IMG/VR virus record: IMGVR_UViG_3300021057_000003
Coordinates: 1 to 50,370 of that record
Source: a virus
Strand: one strand, 5' to 3'
DNA length: 50,370 bases
Below, piece by piece: positions 128 through 29,381 of the stretch. Every line of letters starts with the position of its first letter. The first letter of the stretch is position 1. The notes beneath the pieces were generated by a model, which saw nothing but the letters and a program-made list of their open reading frames with translations, searched no databases and was not told where the DNA came from. The position numbers and the translations under genes are program-made.

Positions 128-288
128 CGGTCTCGTGTTCGGATGTAGTGATGAAACCCTATGTGTCCTGCTGCGGAGTTGAACCAGTCAGCGATTGATG
201 AGTCCGCCTTGGGATCATCGGAAGCCGCTGGCACTTCGAGCAGTGATAAGAGAAGTCGGCGCAACCATAGTCGAAACCTACTTCTCAT
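1..288 (-). CDS. Hypothetical protein spanning the contig cut (5' part)
   Basis: This frame starts at ATG 288 (MRSRFRLWLRR) and is still open at base 1. Joined through the circle to 50243-50229 it ends in TGA, giving a 100-aa protein. The N-terminus is rich in Arg and Leu; the middle has His-rich segments and the C-terminus is charged and probably helical (RLLSRAQAERSKKAS). I do not recognise the family. It follows the GroES gene and precedes the scaffold gene, so it probably belongs to the packaging/head-assembly region. An annotation made on the linear contig would truncate it at both ends. Confidence 0.7.
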   Translation of the reverse strand, partial: MRSRFRLWLRRLLLSLLEVPAASDDPKADSSIADWFNSAAGHIGFHHYIRTRDRALVEHMMKLPIETEKERVLYYQAQGARIEHARLLSRAQAERS

Positions 289-316
289 GGTGAAAGTGTA
301 GCATGTGCGTTTTGCA

Positions 317-604: not shown

Positions 605-888
605 AAAATGAACTGTGATTCGATGCTTATAAACTTCCTTCCTTCGTGCTCGAACTCATCGCCGTCGTGCCGATTGAGGGTCACTTCGGTTCCGGGGGGA
701 ATACCAGAACGGCCAGGTGAGGTGACGACGGCGGAGCGGATGTGATTGGTGAAGGTGTGGTCGATCACCTTGTCCCCCTTCATGAACTCCCGCTCCCACT
801 CCCTCGAAACCCTCAAGATGCCGTTCTCTTCCTCAACGACCTTTCCGGTGAGCTCCGCGATGATGCGGTTTCCGTAGGCGTTAAGCAC
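580..888 (-). CDS. Divergent GroES-fold protein (second co-chaperonin-like)
   Basis: A 102-aa protein starting at GTG 888. The order of elements follows GroES: GNRIIAEL near the start, SAVVTSPG in the middle, IPPGTEVTLNRHDGDEFEHEG, and the closing ISIESQFILC, which aligns with VEEKYILC of the next gene. The usual mobile-loop region is replaced by a longer charged insert (residues about 20-50). The assignment rests on this order of motifs and on tandem position with a clear GroES; overall identity is low. It may be a duplicated partner giving mixed caps, or a different protein of the same fold. Confidence 0.6.
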   Translation of the reverse strand: MLNAYGNRIIAELTGKVVEEENGILRVSREWEREFMKGDKVIDHTFTNHIRSAVVTSPGRSGIPPGTEVTLNRHDGDEFEHEGRKFISIESQFILCNPTTTE

Positions 889-1099: not shown

Positions 1100-2628
1100 G
1101 AATAGAAACTCTTCGTTGCTTTACGCTTTTCTTTTAAACGGTCCTTCTTCACCTTCATACGGAGGCGGAAGAACCTGTCCTCCATCGAGGTGGTCGTTTC
1201 ATAGGGTGTCGGGCCTGAGTTCAAGCCATATCTGAGCGCGTCTGGTGCATGGTCCTCCTGCGTCGTGTCAACGTCCTCCACTTTCGTGTCGTCGTAGATG
1301 AGGGCCGGGAGAGTCCTGATGAGGTTCTTGCAGACGTTGAAGACGGCCACCTTCGCGATCACCTTGCCTTCAGCCTCGTAGGGCTTCAGGTATTCGCGGA
1401 CACGCTGCCAGCCGATGATTCGCTCATTCATTCCGCGTTTCAGCATGAGCTCAGTTGACAGACCTGGCATTTCTACCGGGATGTTCTTGTTCTTTTCCCG
1501 CATCACCTCGCGATACCTGGCCTGCATGATTTCAGCTCCGGAGAGGCCGTTCTCAGCTTCGCCTTTCCGTGCCCAGATAGCCGGGTCAAACACCCAATAG
1601 TCAATGCGCTCGTCGCCCGGTGTGTTCGCGATGATCTCGTCTACGAGCTGCGAGTAGGTGTACTCGGTGACATAGAGCTCGCGGTAGATGAATACGCGCT
1701 CTTCTGGTGAGACAGCGCCCCACAGGACCGCCGAAGGCGCTTTGTATCCATAGTCACCCATGAGGAACCGCTTCCAGTTCTTGGGGATGGCGAAGGGCTC
1801 ACAGACATGGATGTCTTCGCGCCACTCAGCAAAGTACTGCCCCGCAAAGAGATCCCACTCTCCCTCGCGCCAGGCTTTCCCCAGGTCGCCTGAGAGGGAT
1901 TCGAGGTAGTCGCGGTATTCGGCGTTGACAAAGGCGTTGTCCTTGTACGTCGATGGGATGAACCTGGTCTCGTGCTCCAGGCCGATCCGGTGCGGCTGGA
2001 TGTAGCGCTCTTTGACGTAGCTGTGCCCGATGCCGCCTGGGTTGAAGGAGGTGTACATCCTCGGACGCCAGCCGTCCTTCGAGGTACGAAGGGAGCCGCG
2101 GATCTTGGTGACCTTCTCTTTGGTGAGCTGGTTCACCTCCTCGATCGCGATCAAGTCGTATTCGATCCCGATGTACTTGTCGATGTCCTTGTCGTCCTTG
2201 AATCCGCCGAGGAGGACGCGGGAGCCATTCGGGAAGGAGAGGGTGTTACTGGCGCGGTTGTAGTTGTAGTCAACCTTCCCAGCGAAGACCTTAATGATTA
2301 AGTCCTCAAACGATTCCTTCGCGGAGATCCCGGTCTGGCGGAGGAAGAGTGCCTTCAGCCGGGGCATCCGCTGGCAGTCGTCTAAGCCGATCTGGGCCAT
2401 TACGGCGTGCGATTTGCCTGGTCCTCGGGCTCCCCCTACACCGATGTCCACAGGCCCCAGGGCATGGTCTGCCTGGCGGCAGATGGCATGGAAGTTGAGC
2501 TGCCACGGTAAAGGCACGTAGCCACGGGATACGAACCCGGCGATCTGGTCCTTCGGGCAACCCGCTTCTCGGGCTTTGGTGAAGAACTTGGTATATCGCT
2601 CTACTTCTTTGTCGTTTTCCCCTTCCAT
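1096..2628 (-). CDS. terL: Terminase large subunit (packaging ATPase/nuclease)
   Basis: A 510-aa DNA-packaging motor. The N-terminal ATPase has Walker A GGARGPGKS at residues 65-73 and Walker B DLIAIEE at 158-164, followed by the coupling segment SFNPGG near 194-199. The C-terminal RNase H-like nuclease shows acidic residues in MGDYGYKAPS (about 290-299), VFDPAIW (about 347-352) and a late EDHAPDALRYGL. Length and order are typical of complete TerL proteins. It is read toward the GroES genes and is separated from terS by a plus-strand nuclease gene and about 480 bp of non-coding DNA. Confidence 0.95.
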   Translation of the reverse strand: MEGENDKEVERYTKFFTKAREAGCPKDQIAGFVSRGYVPLPWQLNFHAICRQADHALGPVDIGVGGARGPGKSHAVMAQIGLDDCQRMPRLKALFLRQTGISAKESFEDLIIKVFAGKVDYNYNRASNTLSFPNGSRVLLGGFKDDKDIDKYIGIEYDLIAIEEVNQLTKEKVTKIRGSLRTSKDGWRPRMYTSFNPGGIGHSYVKERYIQPHRIGLEHETRFIPSTYKDNAFVNAEYRDYLESLSGDLGKAWREGEWDLFAGQYFAEWREDIHVCEPFAIPKNWKRFLMGDYGYKAPSAVLWGAVSPEERVFIYRELYVTEYTYSQLVDEIIANTPGDERIDYWVFDPAIWARKGEAENGLSGAEIMQARYREVMREKNKNIPVEMPGLSTELMLKRGMNERIIGWQRVREYLKPYEAEGKVIAKVAVFNVCKNLIRTLPALIYDDTKVEDVDTTQEDHAPDALRYGLNSGPTPYETTTSMEDRFFRLRMKVKKDRLKEKRKATKSFYS

Positions 2629-4243: not shown

Positions 4244-4384
4244 ATGAGCGAACGAGAGAAAGAACTGAGGCTGAGAGAGCATGATCTGTGGGAGAAGCTC
4301 GACACGCTTCATTGTCCCCACGATCTCATAGAGAAGCTCATACAGGTGAGGATAGAACTAGACAGACTTATACATAACAACTAA
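4244..4384 (+). CDS. Small charged helical protein, unknown
   Basis: A 46-aa protein, almost entirely charged helix (SEREKELRLREHDLWEKLD) with one Cys-Pro-His turn. It starts one base after the previous stop, which suggests coupled translation. It resembles no family I know and could be a small coiled-coil adaptor. Confidence 0.55.
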   Translation: MSEREKELRLREHDLWEKLDTLHCPHDLIEKLIQVRIELDRLIHNN

Positions 4385-4388
4385 AAAC

Positions 4389-4541
4389 ATGCAAGATCTA
4401 CATGTAGGACAGGTTGTCCGCTTGAAGGGGGCCGAGGGAACGTTCACCATCTCAGAAATTGACGGGGACATGGTGGCGTTCGTGGGAGATGAACCGGGTG
4501 AGAGCTACGTCGATTTGAAAGACGTGGAGCCTATCAATTAA
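4389..4541 (+). CDS. Small beta-rich protein, unknown
   Basis: A 50-aa acidic protein with alternating hydrophobic strands (GQVVRLKGAEGTFTISEIDGD) resembling a small SH3/KOW-like barrel; this is a visual impression only. Its start lies in the context AAAACATGCA, used also at 4074, 4553 and 4940, with no Shine-Dalgarno. Confidence 0.5.
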   Translation: MQDLHVGQVVRLKGAEGTFTISEIDGDMVAFVGDEPGESYVDLKDVEPIN

Positions 4542-11972: not shown

Positions 11973-13613
11973 CTAATCGTCGTTCCGTGAGTCGTCGTGC
12001 TCCGGGATGATGCGCTCCACTTTATCTGCGGCGAATCGCTCTCTGTTTTCTCGGAGCAACGCTTTGAGGTCATCGCGCTTCGGGAGCCGGTCAAGCGAGC
12101 CGTACTCTACATCAATCACCGCGCTTTGCCCGCCCTTCAGGTGGGTGAAAAACTCAAGTTTCCTGAGGCCCATAAGCGCTTCAGGCTCAGTGTGCATGTC
12201 GTCCGCAAGCGCACGCGCATCCTTCGCAGAAATACCGCAGACAGCCTTAATCGAAGTGTTGGAAATGACGGAGTGTTCAACAGTCTTGGGAATCTGCCCT
12301 AACGATTGAAACGCCAAGGTGAGCCCGAGCTTGTACTTCCGCCCTGTCTCCAAGATGTTCGAGGTTTGCTCAGACATGACGGGCGCGGCCTCGTCTATGT
12401 ACAAGAAGACGGGCAGGTAGTCTCCGCCCGGATCGCGCTCCTGGATCGCTTGGAAGATGAGCGCGGTGATGAAGCGCGTAAAGAAAGCCGACCCCTCGTC
12501 CTTTAGGAAGCTGCGGGCAGTGTTGATAAGCACCACAGAGCCGTTGTCCAGAATCTCCCGCATGTTCAGCTTGGTTCTGGGAGCTGAGAACATCCTTTCA
12601 AGGGCGGTGTTTGAAAGAATCGAATAGATCCGCCTCCTGATCTGCTCACGGGTTTCCTTGAAGCCGCTCCCCATGTATTCGTTCTTGAAAAACTCCTGGG
12701 CGGTGCGTGAGAGCTTCCCAATATGCGGAGCGTGGACCTTGAATTTATCGTCGGTGAGAAGGTCGAGGAGCGTATGGATGGTCGCGTCTTCGATCACCAG
12801 GCAGAGCCGAATGAGCATTTCAAGCGGAAGTCTCTGCTTTGCAGTGACGCTGGAATCCATTGACTCCAGGACAAACAAGAGGAGTTCGACAACCGAGTTG
12901 AAGTTCTTTTCGCGTTCGTAGGCGGTGTCTCCACCAGTATTGAAGTCAAACAGGGATAGTGCGATGGGATGGTCTACATCGGTAGGATCAATGACAACTG
13001 CACGTTCACGAGGGAAGCGGACGCGAAGGATCTTGTGGATCAAGTCCCCTTGCGAATCGAATACCACCAGCGTGCAGGGCTTGCGGAGGTCTTCTGCAAT
13101 CCACGAAGAGAGAAGCTGTGTCTTCCCGACCCCAGTTCCGCCAAGTACCAGCGTGTGTTCAAGCCTGAGTGCGTCGGGTATCTCGAATTTCGGGGGCTCA
13201 GGTGGTGGTTCGGGTTCCGGCTCAGGAGGTAGCACAGGAAGTGGGGGAGGCTCCTGATTCTTCTCAAAGTACGTGATGTACTGAAACCAGCCAGAAAGAA
13301 TAAGCGCTCCAGCGGACGCACCAAACGCAAGCCATATGAGTGTTGCGTAGAACCAAGATTCCGGTGGTTTGAACTTCTCGAATGCAAGCAATGTCGAGGC
13401 GAAGATAAGTGCTGAAAGTCCGGCAAGGATATACGTCTCAAGCGAGTATGAAACTGTAGGGGGTAAGTCGTGTGGTGTTCGAGGATTGAGGAGATTAAGC
13501 TTGATGATGCGTGTCCGTTCTACCGCGACTGCTTGTCGAGCCTTGAAGAGTTTGTAGCCGTGCCAGAAAGCAAATGCTGAAGGAACAATGAGGAGTGCAA
13601 ACAAGTACAGCAC
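11973..13613 (-). CDS. VirD4/TraG-like type IV coupling ATPase
   Basis: A 546-aa membrane ATPase. Three predicted membrane segments (about 1-22, 61-78, 87-110) and a Pro/Glu linker (121-141) precede a RecA-like motor with Walker A GGTGVGKT (158-165), Walker B VFLYIDEA (403-409) and a TraM-recognition-like tail (LAFQSLGQIPKTVEHSVISNTS). This is the layout of conjugative coupling proteins that bring DNA-protein complexes to a type IV channel. No relaxase of a known MOB family and no channel genes are present. It lies 9 bp after a second such ATPase and just before Replic_Relax. Confidence 0.85.
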   Translation of the reverse strand: MLYLFALLIVPSAFAFWHGYKLFKARQAVAVERTRIIKLNLLNPRTPHDLPPTVSYSLETYILAGLSALIFASTLLAFEKFKPPESWFYATLIWLAFGASAGALILSGWFQYITYFEKNQEPPPLPVLPPEPEPEPPPEPPKFEIPDALRLEHTLVLGGTGVGKTQLLSSWIAEDLRKPCTLVVFDSQGDLIHKILRVRFPRERAVVIDPTDVDHPIALSLFDFNTGGDTAYEREKNFNSVVELLLFVLESMDSSVTAKQRLPLEMLIRLCLVIEDATIHTLLDLLTDDKFKVHAPHIGKLSRTAQEFFKNEYMGSGFKETREQIRRRIYSILSNTALERMFSAPRTKLNMREILDNGSVVLINTARSFLKDEGSAFFTRFITALIFQAIQERDPGGDYLPVFLYIDEAAPVMSEQTSNILETGRKYKLGLTLAFQSLGQIPKTVEHSVISNTSIKAVCGISAKDARALADDMHTEPEALMGLRKLEFFTHLKGGQSAVIDVEYGSLDRLPKRDDLKALLRENRERFAADKVERIIPEHDDSRNDD

Positions 13614-15586: not shown

Positions 15587-15770
15587 ACATGGGGCAAGGA
15601 TTTGACGAGGATGGTCGTAAACACGGGACGTTGCAATAACGTTTGCCGCGCCACCTACTCGTATAGTCACCTTGCATTTACAGCCCAACGACCGTAAGGC
15701 GTTTCTTGTTTAAAGTGGAGACACCGGCTCCATTACTGTGCTATTTGCGTTCCTTTTACGCCACCCATGT
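15587..15770 (-). ncRNA. tRNA-shaped RNA A (184 nt)
   Basis: On the minus strand: ACATGGG (15770-15764) pairs perfectly with CCCATGT (15593-15587) as a 7-bp acceptor-like stem, followed by TG and a D-arm-like GCGT-AAAAGGA-ACGC. An extended anticodon-side arm (ACAG...CTGT enclosing a TGGAG-CCGGTGT-CTCCA hairpin and another) follows. Then GCAAGG/CCTTGC (15675-15670/15599-15594) is placed where a T stem belongs, next to an internal loop TGACTAT/CAAAT and an inner stem ACGAG/CTCGT. RNA B at 29237 has the same architecture and identical internal-loop sequences. No valid anticodon or normal T-loop, so it is not an ordinary tRNA. Confidence 0.6.
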
Positions 15771-16059: not shown

Positions 16060-16527
16060 CTACAAATGGTTGACCTTTGGTTTACCTATAGGTCTGCCGC
16101 GTTTGCGGAGCATGTACTCCTGTTGCTTGCGATTCTTGCAAGTCCGACACACACGCCACGCCCTGCGGCCGCGGACTCGAATCTTCAGGTTGTCCCCGGA
16201 AAGGGGGTGTCCTGCATCACAGTGGGTAGCTCGCGCATACTTGGCTGATGGTGCCTCACCGCGCAATGTGTTCGTTTCTTGTGAAACAGGCTCCAAGTGG
16301 AGAGGATTAACACAGATTGGGTTCCTACAGAGATGGTCGATGACCTTCCCGAAGGGAATCCGTGTGTCAGTGAAGAACTCGTAGGAGACTCTGTGCGCTG
16401 GTTTTGAGGTTCCGTTGAAATGGAACTCACCATAACCATTACCCTTCTGACTTCCTGTCCAAATCCAACATGAATCTGTCTGGTCGATTCGCGTGACGAA
16501 TCTGTCTATATCCTTTCCTTGAAGCAC
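16060..16527 (-). CDS. HNH endonuclease (HNH_3 type)
   Basis: A 155-aa protein from GTG 16527. DSCWIWTGSQKGNGYGEFHFNG, RVSYEFF and IDHLCRNPICVNPLHLEPVS form the HNH core (catalytic His in DHLC, Asn in CVNPLHL). A second Cys/His zinc knuckle (THCDAGH, RVCRTCK) and an AT-hook-like RKRGRP tail follow. Enzymes of this kind are mostly mobile homing nucleases. It is followed on its strand by the hairpin array and tRNA-shaped RNA A. No intron is apparent. Confidence 0.9.
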   Translation of the reverse strand: MLQGKDIDRFVTRIDQTDSCWIWTGSQKGNGYGEFHFNGTSKPAHRVSYEFFTDTRIPFGKVIDHLCRNPICVNPLHLEPVSQETNTLRGEAPSAKYARATHCDAGHPLSGDNLKIRVRGRRAWRVCRTCKNRKQQEYMLRKRGRPIGKPKVNHL

Positions 16528-16796: not shown

Positions 16797-16991
16797 CTAT
16801 CGGGGTCGCAAATCTAGAAGGCGCTGAATGTAGTCGTCTATCTCCTGCTCATCCCAGTAGGACATTCCGTTAGGGCCGTTGGGCTTTCCTGGTTCAGGTA
16901 GCTTTCCGGCCTTCACCCGTCGCTCCAAGGTAGCTTTGGCGATTCCGAGCTTTAAACAAACTTGCCTTTTATTTAACAGTCTGCGTGTCAT
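16797..16991 (-). CDS. AlpA-like excisionase/DNA-binding protein
   Basis: A 64-aa protein from ATG 16991, overlapping the integrase 3' end by 23 bp. LLNKRQVCLKLGIAKATLERRVKAGKLPEP and MSYWDEQEIDDYI form the MerR-like winged HTH of AlpA/Xis proteins, which bend attachment-site DNA and set the direction of recombination. The longer frame to 17051 lies wholly within the integrase and is less likely. Confidence 0.85.
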   Translation of the reverse strand: MTRRLLNKRQVCLKLGIAKATLERRVKAGKLPEPGKPNGPNGMSYWDEQEIDDYIQRLLDLRPR

Positions 16992-18090
16992 GCGCGATCT
17001 CCGAAGAGTCGTGCACGACGCCTTGGTAGGCGGGATTGCCACCGAAGGCACTGACGATTTTCAGGATGAATGCGCTGTAAGTCAACAATGCTTCTCGGAC
17101 TTCATCCTCATATTCGTAGCGGTTGTATGTGCGTGCGATAGGGGTGAGCGTGCCTTGGACATGGTTCAAAATCTTCTCGGTGATGTGGATGGGCACCTTG
17201 AGCCTGGCGAGGTTCGTTGAGAACGTGCGCCGGAGGTCGTGGAGCCTCCAGTTCTTCACGCCACAGAGGGCATCGAGCTTCTTCTTCTCCTCGCTCCAGC
17301 ACGGCTCTCCCAAGACGGGAAGGTGCTGTTTCATGAGCGGGGTGATCGGAAGGGTGTGGCTACGGTTGTTCTTCGTTTCCTCGAAGTGAAGGTGGGTTGT
17401 CCCTGTGCCGTACTTCGCAATCTCATTCCGACGGGCTCCAGAGAGCATGAGTACCCTGACCAGGTGGCCGTAGGGCTTGTAGTCGGTGGCGTTCCAGATG
17501 GCAACCAGCTCCTCGTCTGTGAGGACGCGTTCACGGGACTTCAGCTTGTTCGGCATGTCCACCCTGGAGAGGGGATTGACGGTCAAGATGTCCTCTTTGA
17601 CGCACCACATGAAGAAGGTGCGGAGAACCTGTTGCGCCACGTTCTGCGCCGTGTCCTTCCCTGCCAAGTCTTTCAGCTTCTCGGTTACGTCCTTGCGGGT
17701 GATGTGATCGACGCGCTTCGTGAATCCGAAGAAGTTGAGGTAGGTTTTGTAGAGGCGGAGGCTCGTTGCCTTCATTTTGTGCTTCCGAGCCTCCAGGAAC
17801 GCGTCTACGGCCTCTGGATACGGTTTTGGCGTACCAGTCGGTTTCGTGCTGGAAGACCCCGCAAAAACGATTTTTGCTCGAATGCGAGCGTCTTTGAGGG
17901 TGAGGTCGGGGTAGCGCCCGAGGGTGGTGAGCCTCCGCTCCTTCCCCGTGACCACAATGAAGGTCTTTGCGCCCCCTTGCGAGAGGCGAATGCCGAATCC
18001 ACGGAGCGTGGTGTCAAAAATGGTGAGCTGGCCCTTCTCTGGAGCCTTCAAACGCTGAATGAGCAGGTCGGTTAGTTGCGCTTTAGCCAC
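16969..18090 (-). CDS. int: Tyrosine recombinase integrase, P4 type
   Basis: A 373-aa protein from GTG 18090 (SD AAAGGAAG). The DUF4102-like arm-binding domain (residues 1-75, LTDLLIQRLKAPEKG, RLTTLGRYPDLTLKDAR) is followed by a SAM-like core-binding domain (85-170) and the catalytic domain: R220 in SGARRNE, H284 and R287 in LHDLRRTF, H310 in KILNHVQG, Y322 in ARTYNRY. All catalytic residues are present. It would insert the phage into a host attachment site; attP was not identified. Confidence 0.95.
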   Translation of the reverse strand: MAKAQLTDLLIQRLKAPEKGQLTIFDTTLRGFGIRLSQGGAKTFIVVTGKERRLTTLGRYPDLTLKDARIRAKIVFAGSSSTKPTGTPKPYPEAVDAFLEARKHKMKATSLRLYKTYLNFFGFTKRVDHITRKDVTEKLKDLAGKDTAQNVAQQVLRTFFMWCVKEDILTVNPLSRVDMPNKLKSRERVLTDEELVAIWNATDYKPYGHLVRVLMLSGARRNEIAKYGTGTTHLHFEETKNNRSHTLPITPLMKQHLPVLGEPCWSEEKKKLDALCGVKNWRLHDLRRTFSTNLARLKVPIHITEKILNHVQGTLTPIARTYNRYEYEDEVREALLTYSAFILKIVSAFGGNPAYQGVVHDSSEIAHDTQTVK

Positions 18091-18992: not shown

Positions 18993-19190
18993 TTTTCTTT
19001 GATGTTATTGTTAATGAGGAAGCAGTGGCTCAAAAGGTTTCTGACCGGCACACGGCACTACTAGAGGTAGTAGGTTCTGTCATGGGGTTCCTCTCCCTTA
19101 TCAGATGCAGGGTGACTTTACAGGGCAATATAAATTCAGAGGTCTGTGAGCACACGTCGGCTCCCTGGCAATTCCCTGCCCGCTTCCTTC
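18993..19190. other. 198-bp gap, short SD-led ORF only
   Basis: On the minus strand GAGAGG precedes a 17-codon ORF (MTEPTTSSSAVCRSETF) at about 19082-19032, possibly a leader peptide. CTAC-TAGAG-GTAG is a small hairpin. I see nothing else convincing; it is probably the leader of the 18282 gene. Confidence 0.3.
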
Positions 19191-19221
19191 ACTCCCGACT
19201 TAGTTTCGGGAGTTTTCTTTT
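19191..19221 (+). terminator. Plus-strand terminator overlapping the 19200 stop
   Basis: ACTCCCGA (19191-19198) pairs with TCGGGAGT (19206-19213), then TTTCTTTT. The T tract is on the plus strand only. It overlaps the 3' end of the minus gene at 19200 and may guard against antisense transcription. Confidence 0.7.
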
Positions 19222-29236: not shown

Positions 29237-29381
29237 TGAGAGGGCAAGGATTTGACGAGCCAGGATTGGACCTGAATCTACTCGTATAGTCACCTTGCAT
29301 GAATCTCTACGCTAGCGGGTTTGGCACCACCGCACCCCAAGAGACTTTTCAGTGAGCGTCTACCTATTCCGCCACCTCTCA
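29237..29381 (-). ncRNA. tRNA-shaped RNA B (145 nt)
   Basis: On the minus strand TGAGAGG (29381-29375) pairs with CCTCTCA (29243-29237). It continues TG, then GCG-GAATAGGTAGA-CGC, a textbook class II tRNA D-arm. The anticodon-side arm is AGTCTCT/AGAGATT enclosing 31 nt, followed by five nt as in a variable loop. Then GCAAGG/CCTTGC (29299... to 29244), internal loop TGACTAT/CAAAT and inner stem ACGAG/CTCGT with CAGG/CCTG at the tip. The 23-base block 29278-29300 and 18-base block 29242-29259 are identical in RNA A. No CCA or usable anticodon is evident. Confidence 0.6.

What the first reader, a model, noticed from the sequence alone, without database searches (positions are those of the whole stretch)
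15587..15770. Pair of tRNA-shaped RNAs with an identical internal-loop motif and no anticodon (copy A; copy B at 29237-29381)
Two unlinked intergenic loci, both read on the minus strand, fold into the same plan. A perfect 7-bp acceptor stem has unrelated sequence in the two copies but is fully paired in each. TG and a D-arm (GCG...CGC) follow, then an extended anticodon-side arm, and a 6-bp stem GCAAGG/CCTTGC where the T stem belongs. Instead of a T-loop there is an internal loop (TGACTAT/CAAAT), a second stem ACGAG/CTCGT and a variable tip. The 23-base and 18-base blocks around the loop are identical while the rest has diverged with pairing kept. If everything between GGT and TCAAATCC is removed, a canonical T-loop (TTCAAAT) results, so this could be a tRNA whose T-loop was opened by an insertion, or a tRNA mimic. 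Both copies neighbour an HNH gene. I know of no described RNA family with this layout.
Basis: partly seen in the sequence, partly recalled or inferred. Interest (0 to 1): 0.88.

Follow-up and report, generated by a model that had tools for sequence, protein, structure and literature searches.

The report
Phage tRNA-like RNA, opened T-loop
Many unrelated bacterial viruses carry a previously undescribed RNA gene that looks like a transfer RNA without an anticodon, with a folded domain pushed into one of its loops and inner parts that change completely between close relatives; it is a real, widespread RNA family whose job is still unknown.

Summary
Both copies fold as described, and a third, diverged copy lies at 19019-19186 (+). 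They belong to a family with no Rfam match. DNA patterns and a covariance model found about 90-120 relatives, almost all in unrelated IMG/VR phage contigs, one in a GenBank phage.

Anatomy: a 7-bp acceptor stem (93-97% paired versus 41-51% shuffled at positions 1-6, all pair types); TG; a D-arm 18/19 identical to E. coli tRNA-Leu; an H-type pseudoknot instead of an anticodon arm, ending 2 nt before the T stem; a 6-bp T stem; and a T-loop split between U54 and nucleotide 55 by a covarying hairpin or pseudoknot domain. Five relatives sit in phage tRNA clusters; one starts directly after a tRNA's CCA.

In four comparisons of phages with homologous flanks, the frame is kept but the inner domains are unrelated. 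No neighbour gene is conserved.

It is not a tRNA (no anticodon, no encoded NCCA, closing stem often extended), not tmRNA, and not T4 species 1 RNA. I read it as a stable trans-acting tRNA mimic. Its function is inferred only: probably a handle for tRNA-handling host factors carrying fast-changing effector domains.

The parts
15587..15770 (-). Copy A, whole tRNA-like RNA (acceptor to acceptor)
15764..15770 (-). Copy A acceptor 5' strand ACATGGG; pairs continue 3 bp outward to 15773
15747..15763 (-). Copy A TG + D-arm (GCG..CGC, loop with GG); a diverged D-arm
15676..15746 (-). Copy A middle domain in place of the anticodon arm; here a hairpin TTACGGTC/GGCTGTAA ends 2 nt before the T stem
15594..15675 (-). 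Copy A T-arm: GCAAGG, TGACTAT, inner stem ACGAG..CTCGT with the insertion, CAAAT, CCTTGC
   Evidence: R1 57.6 bits
15587..15593 (-). Copy A acceptor 3' strand CCCATGT; pairs continue to 15584; no CCA
29237..29381 (-). Copy B, whole tRNA-like RNA
29375..29381 (-). Copy B acceptor 5' strand TGAGAGG (pairs 29237-29243 CCTCTCA)
29356..29374 (-). Copy B TG + D-arm TGGCGGAATAGGTAGACGC, the family consensus and 18/19 identical to E. coli tRNA-Leu
29299..29355 (-). Copy B middle domain: pseudoknot S1 29350-29355/29327-29332 (TCACTG/CGGTGG, with one G-U), S2 29340-29346/29302-29308 (AGTCTCT/AGAGATT), then CAT
29244..29298 (-). Copy B T-arm with T-loop insertion (inner stem 29281-29285/29255-29259)
   Evidence: R1 57.8 bits
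19019..19186 (+). Copy C, third diverged member: acceptor GAAGCAG (19019-19025)/CCGCTTC (19180-19186), one mismatch; T-arm 19107-19179 with TGACTTT/CAATT; D-arm weak
   Evidence: R1 27.5 bits, E 1e-4 to 9e-6
19192..19221 (+). Terminator-like hairpin CTCCCGA..TCGGGAG followed by TTTTCTTTT, just after copy C
   Evidence: read; no scan run
16060..16527 (-). HNH_3 endonuclease gene, 5' of copy A (neighbour, not part of the RNA)
   Evidence: PF13392
28530..29165 (-). Endonuclease VII/HNH-type gene, 3' of copy B (neighbour, not part of the RNA)
   Evidence: PHROG 1035

Best explanation
SHOWN: this is a new family of phage-encoded structured RNA genes whose frame is tRNA-derived. The frame is an acceptor stem, U8-G9, a tRNA-Leu-like D-arm and a T-arm. 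An H-type pseudoknot stands in place of the anticodon arm, and a hairpin or pseudoknot domain is inserted in the T-loop between U54 and nucleotide 55. The two inner domains are nearly unrelated in sequence across the family and are replaced even between phages with homologous flanks, while the frame is kept. INFERRED: the RNA is a stable trans-acting tRNA mimic, cotranscribed with phage tRNAs where these exist; in those copies its 5' end is made by tRNA processing (RNase P). The kept elbow (D-loop GG plus the split T-loop) lets it be held by host tRNA-handling machinery: RNase P, the ribosome, tRNA-modifying enzymes or tRNA-targeting defence nucleases. The fast-changing pseudoknot domains act as the effector or evasion surfaces. 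The most likely use is as a decoy or inhibitor in the phage-host conflict.
For: Compensatory pairing in the acceptor, T stem and inner stem of 90 independently anchored elements. H-type pseudoknot in the middle domain (p 4e-7) with S2 ending 2-3 nt before the T stem (p 1e-9 and 1e-8). D-arm 18/19 identical to E. coli leuV. Five elements in phage tRNA clusters on the same strand, one starting directly after a tRNA-Glu CCA. No conserved neighbour gene, hence trans action. Inner domains unrelated between phages with 83-99% identical flanks.
Against: No transcript, binding partner or phenotype is known. The closing stem is extended by 5 or more pairs in 33 of 90 elements, which does not suit a free tRNA-like 3' end or simple RNase P processing. 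Replacement of inner domains could also come from recombination without conflict. Most elements are not near tRNAs.
Confidence: 0.4

Rival explanations
1. A ribosome- or translation-directed RNA that works like a small tmRNA or a tRNA mimic: the top half of a tRNA binds EF-Tu or the ribosome, and the pseudoknot in the anticodon position imitates or blocks a decoding helix.
For: Layout recalls tmRNA: tRNA-like domain with pseudoknots in place of the anticodon arm. tRNA-Leu-like D-arm; location in tRNA clusters.
Against: No encoded NCCA in any of 90 elements, and none in L094 although its tRNAs encode it. Middle domains as short as 24 nt leave no room for a tag frame. A domain in the T-loop would stand in the way on the ribosome. 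tmRNA is not recognised by ARAGORN or Rfam.
Confidence: 0.2
2. A mobile or recombination-driven cassette: the conserved D-arm and T-arm are anchors through which inner cassettes are exchanged, perhaps driven by neighbouring HNH homing endonucleases; any RNA role is secondary.
For: Inner domains replaced precisely from the end of the D-arm; HNH genes beside copies A and B and several relatives; up to three copies per phage.
Against: Pairing is conserved in every helix, including inside the replaced domains, which an RNA-neutral cassette would not need. No HNH gene near most copies. No inserted ORF.
Confidence: 0.12
3. A tRNA whose T-loop (and anticodon arm) are interrupted by introns that are removed, leaving a working tRNA.
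For: Reading across the insertion gives a canonical T-loop, TTCAAAT. Archaeal T-loop introns are known (general knowledge).
Against: No anticodon arm is left in the middle domain in general; acceptor extended in a third of elements and no NCCA; in 34 of 90 the joined loop would carry G at position 55; RtcB in 3/54 and T4-type ligase above cut-off in 2/54 carriers. The insertion is itself a covarying domain.
Confidence: 0.06
4. A cis-acting element (leader, attenuator or riboswitch) of the next gene.
For: Mostly codirectional with neighbours (44/65 upstream, 47/63 downstream).
Against: 505 neighbouring ORFs fall into 484 clusters, so no gene family follows it; copies inside tRNA arrays; copy C is followed by its own terminator-like hairpin and neighbours genes on the other strand.
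Confidence: 0.08
5. A DNA-level element such as a phage attachment site or a hairpin recognised as single-stranded DNA.
For: A tyrosine integrase lies within about 1.2 kb of copy A and next to L033, L106 and L090. The closing stem is often long.
Against: No integrase next to most copies; several copies per genome; intact copies in bacterial-genome contigs, where an attP would be split; acceptor sequence varies freely; copies embedded in tRNA clusters.
Confidence: 0.05

Closest known systems
tRNA-Leu (class II tRNA)
   Same: D-arm TGGCGGAATAGGTAGACGC is 18/19 identical to E. coli leuV; U8, acceptor plus T-stem stack, T-loop letters on both sides of the insertion
   Different: No anticodon arm, T-loop split by a 17-85 nt insertion, 6-bp T stem, often extended acceptor, no encoded CCA
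tmRNA (ssrA)
   Same: Upper half of a tRNA with pseudoknots in place of the anticodon arm
   Different: About 104-330 nt (median 171), has a D stem, T-loop opened, no tag frame needed, not recognised by ARAGORN or Rfam
T4 species 1 RNA (rnaC) and species 2 RNA (rnaD)
   Same: Stable small RNAs of unknown role in a phage tRNA cluster; rnaC has a tRNA-like 3' half
   Different: rnaC has an intact canonical T-arm CCGGGTTCGAATCCCGG and gives no match to model R1
GOLLD, ROOL and HEARO RNAs (from general knowledge)
   Same: Structured phage or mobile-element RNAs, some near tRNAs or HNH genes
   Different: Those are larger and have Rfam models; this family reaches no Rfam gathering score

Membership tests
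tRNA | 7-bp acceptor stem and D-arm of tRNA type | tested here: met
tRNA | Anticodon arm with 7-nt loop | tested here: not met
   Middle domain is an H-type pseudoknot; only L160 has a 7-nt anticodon-like loop
tRNA | Uninterrupted 7-nt T-loop | tested here: not met
   Insertion of 17-85 nt between U54 and nucleotide 55
tRNA | Recognised by tRNA gene finders and the Rfam tRNA model | tested here: not met
tRNA | 3' CCA and aminoacylation | not testable with these tools
   No NCCA encoded in 90 elements; addition and charging need experiments
tmRNA | Recognised by ARAGORN or the Rfam tmRNA models | tested here: not met
tmRNA | Tag reading frame | tested here: inconclusive
   Middle domains of 24-50 nt in many members leave little room; frames were not searched one by one
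tmRNA | Pseudoknot(s) in place of the anticodon arm | tested here: met
T4 species 1 RNA (rnaC) | Canonical T-arm | tested here: not met
T4 species 1 RNA (rnaC) | Gene inside a phage tRNA cluster | tested here: met
   In five relatives, not in the window, which has no tRNA gene
tRNA with T-loop intron | Splicing to a mature tRNA | not testable with these tools
   Indirect evidence against: no anticodon arm, RNA ligases rare

The most novel reading that the evidence does not exclude
A widespread new class of phage RNA in which a constant tRNA-derived frame carries two exchangeable pseudoknot domains, one at the anticodon position and one projecting from the elbow. The domains are swapped like cartridges under an arms race, so that the RNA is seized by tRNA-handling or tRNA-targeting host factors and disables or distracts them.
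Probability: 0.33. Interest if true: 0.93.

Novelty: new variant of a known kind. Interest (0 to 1): 0.8.

Why it matters
It adds a structured RNA family, found across many unrelated phages, to the short list of tRNA-like non-coding RNAs, with a layout that none of the models searched here covers: opened T-loop, pseudoknot for anticodon arm, kept elbow. The contrast between a constant frame and replaced inner domains points to strong, rapidly changing selection, most easily explained by phage-host conflict over tRNA biology. It also makes testable the old question of why phages keep stable non-tRNA RNAs in their tRNA clusters (T4 species 1 and 2 RNAs).

Tried and rejected
Universal pairing between the middle domain and the T-loop insertion: own versus swapped energies do not differ. 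Cis-regulation through a shared neighbour gene: none shared. Stop-codon recoding with suppressor function: no consistent coding gain under TAG or TGA readthrough; the CTA-like hairpin of L160 is a single, palindromic case. Phage-borne splicing or repair ligases: rare. Known Rfam family: none. Literature: no description found, but most subscription papers are not held. Relatives of the window's own phage for an empty-site test: none found. GenBank relatives of L003 and L023 to name a host: none. Plasmids: no match. A scan for more phages with the flank shared by L004 and L144 found only L004.

Full report
WHAT WAS CLAIMED AND WHAT IS THERE. The window is a 50,370-base IMG/VR virus record with phage structural genes. 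Copies A (15587-15770, -) and B (29237-29381, -) have exactly the described layout. Neither ARAGORN nor Rfam 15 recognises them. Folding of the single sequences is only mildly better than shuffles, so the case rests on comparison.

A THIRD COPY. A covariance model of the T-arm (R1) finds a third, diverged copy on the other strand with its T-arm at 19107-19179. Its acceptor is GAAGCAG/CCGCTTC with one mismatch, and a terminator-like hairpin follows.

IT IS A FAMILY. The two-block pattern TGACTATACGAG-N-CTCGTCAAATCC hits 34 other IMG/VR contigs and a near-identical one hits six prokaryote genome contigs, all MAGs or bins. Relaxed T-arm and D-arm patterns raise the total to about 90-120 elements. 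A GenBank phage, MW202647 (Podoviridae sp. isolate ctMEh928, Manatee Spring), has one. Some phages carry two or three copies.

SELECTION ON STRUCTURE. I re-selected 90 elements using only sequence anchors in the D-arm and T-loop, never the acceptor. Acceptor positions 1-6 are 93-97% paired against 41-51% when partners are shuffled, with GC, CG, AT and TA all present; 76 of 90 have seven perfect pairs. The T stem (GCAAGG, GCAGGG, GCGAGG, GTAGGG and others) and the inner stem (CGAG/CTCG, CAGG/CCTG, CTAG/CTAG, CTCG/CGAG, CTCT/AGAG and others) change on both sides. The T-loop is opened between U54 and nucleotide 55: the 3' half is TCAAAT in 56 elements and GCAAAT in 34. Both counts are shaped by the patterns used to find them. 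The insertion can be minimal (CGAG-TGCAAT-CTCG in L163). In L068, L076 and L144 it is an H-type pseudoknot with 5 of 13 pairs doubly changed among three sequences.

WHAT REPLACES THE ANTICODON ARM. The middle domain (24-221 nt, median 56) holds a helix whose 3' strand ends 2-3 nt before the T stem. Own versus swapped scores differ most at that register (p 1e-9 and 1e-8) and not at 0, 1 or 6 nt. The loop of that helix pairs with the sequence upstream, giving an H-type pseudoknot (own 11.7, swapped 9.5, p 4e-7; 31 of 67 with an S1 of 5 bp or more). Clear cases are L012, L017, L151, L161, L163, L166 and L171. Copy B fits it; copy A shows a hairpin at that place instead. In four elements the middle domain contains a canonical T-arm motif GGTTCRANNCC (0.01 expected). 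No general pairing between the middle domain and the insertion was found.

ORIGIN OF THE FRAME. The commonest D-arm, TGGCGGAATAGGTAGACGC (63 of 90), differs at one of 19 positions from E. coli leuV. The frame is therefore tRNA-Leu-like. The acceptor is free to vary as long as it pairs; the D-arm and T stem are far more constrained, partly because the searches were anchored there.

WHERE IT SITS. Five elements lie in phage tRNA clusters on the same strand: L020, L024 and L025 are 15-33 nt upstream of a tRNA, L049 is in a 33-tRNA array, and L094 begins directly after the CCA of a tRNA-Glu. The element in L094 ends without CCA although that phage's tRNAs encode it. Elsewhere the neighbours differ from phage to phage: 505 neighbouring ORFs form 484 clusters, which argues for a trans-acting RNA. 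HNH genes and integrases recur but are not general. Flanks continue the closing stem by 5 or more pairs in 33 of 90 elements (1.7 expected), so many copies do not end like a tRNA with a free 3' end.

INNER DOMAINS ARE REPLACED. Among 87 elements the middle domains share no detectable sequence except in one pair, and insertions only in three small clusters. Phages G001 and G002, about 97-99% identical in the upstream flanks, carry the same frame at two loci with unrelated inner domains; identity stops at the end of the D-arm. Two more pairs with 83-91% identical upstream flanks show the same.

WHAT IT IS NOT. It is not a tRNA (no anticodon arm, split T-loop), not a recognisable tmRNA, not T4 species 1 RNA (whose T-arm is canonical), and not in Rfam. 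A spliced tRNA is unlikely: RtcB is in 3 of 54 carriers and T4-type RNA ligase is above cut-off in 2 of 54, though many records are fragments and hosts may supply enzymes.

HOW IT PROBABLY WORKS. Shown: a conserved tRNA acceptor and elbow frame with two exchangeable structured domains. Inferred: the frame is a handle for factors that grip tRNAs, and the variable domains are what selection keeps changing. A decoy or inhibitor in phage-host conflict fits best, but no target, transcript or phenotype is known. Identity as a tRNA-derived structured RNA family I hold at about 0.95, and the decoy mechanism at about 0.3; the single confidence of 0.4 covers both.

Noticed in passing
L160, element about 180-290 (-): Shortest middle domain (24 nt) forms ATGG-GTCTAGA-CCAT, a 7-nt loop with U33 and a CTA 'anticodon' (amber); palindromic, may be chance.
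   Followed up: partly
L046, T-arm 4348-4410 (+); G030:19196-20317: An RtcB RNA ligase gene starts right at the 3' end of this element; RtcB is present in only 3 of 54 carriers.
   Followed up: partly
L144 (G001:3500-7600): A direct repeat of at least 1,352 identical nt with a 2,749-nt period, each copy holding the same element; true duplication or assembly artefact not decided.
   Followed up: partly
L004 and L144 flanks: The non-coding regions around the element are mosaics of near-identical and unrelated blocks, as if more RNAs or cassettes lie there.
   Followed up: no
L173 (T4 70908-71171): T4 species 1 and species 2 RNAs have no Rfam match at gathering threshold; species 1 folds strongly (z -4.6) with a canonical T-arm.
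   Followed up: partly
L004, L013, L059, L107 middle domains: A complete canonical T-arm motif (GGTTCRANNCC) lies inside the middle domain of four elements, 0.01 expected.
   Followed up: partly
L079, element near 1897-2071 (+): The T-loop insertion contains a tandem second copy of GTGACTATACGAGT, perhaps a trace of how insertions are exchanged.
   Followed up: no
window 11973-13613 (-): ATPase related to T4SS coupling proteins/HerA (Pfam) and to phage packaging proteins (PHROGs) in a phage that also has a tyrosine integrase at 16969-18090.
   Followed up: no
L071, upstream of the T-arm at 608-666 (-): A long run of GGTCGA/GGTCGT-type hexamer repeats precedes the element.
   Followed up: no
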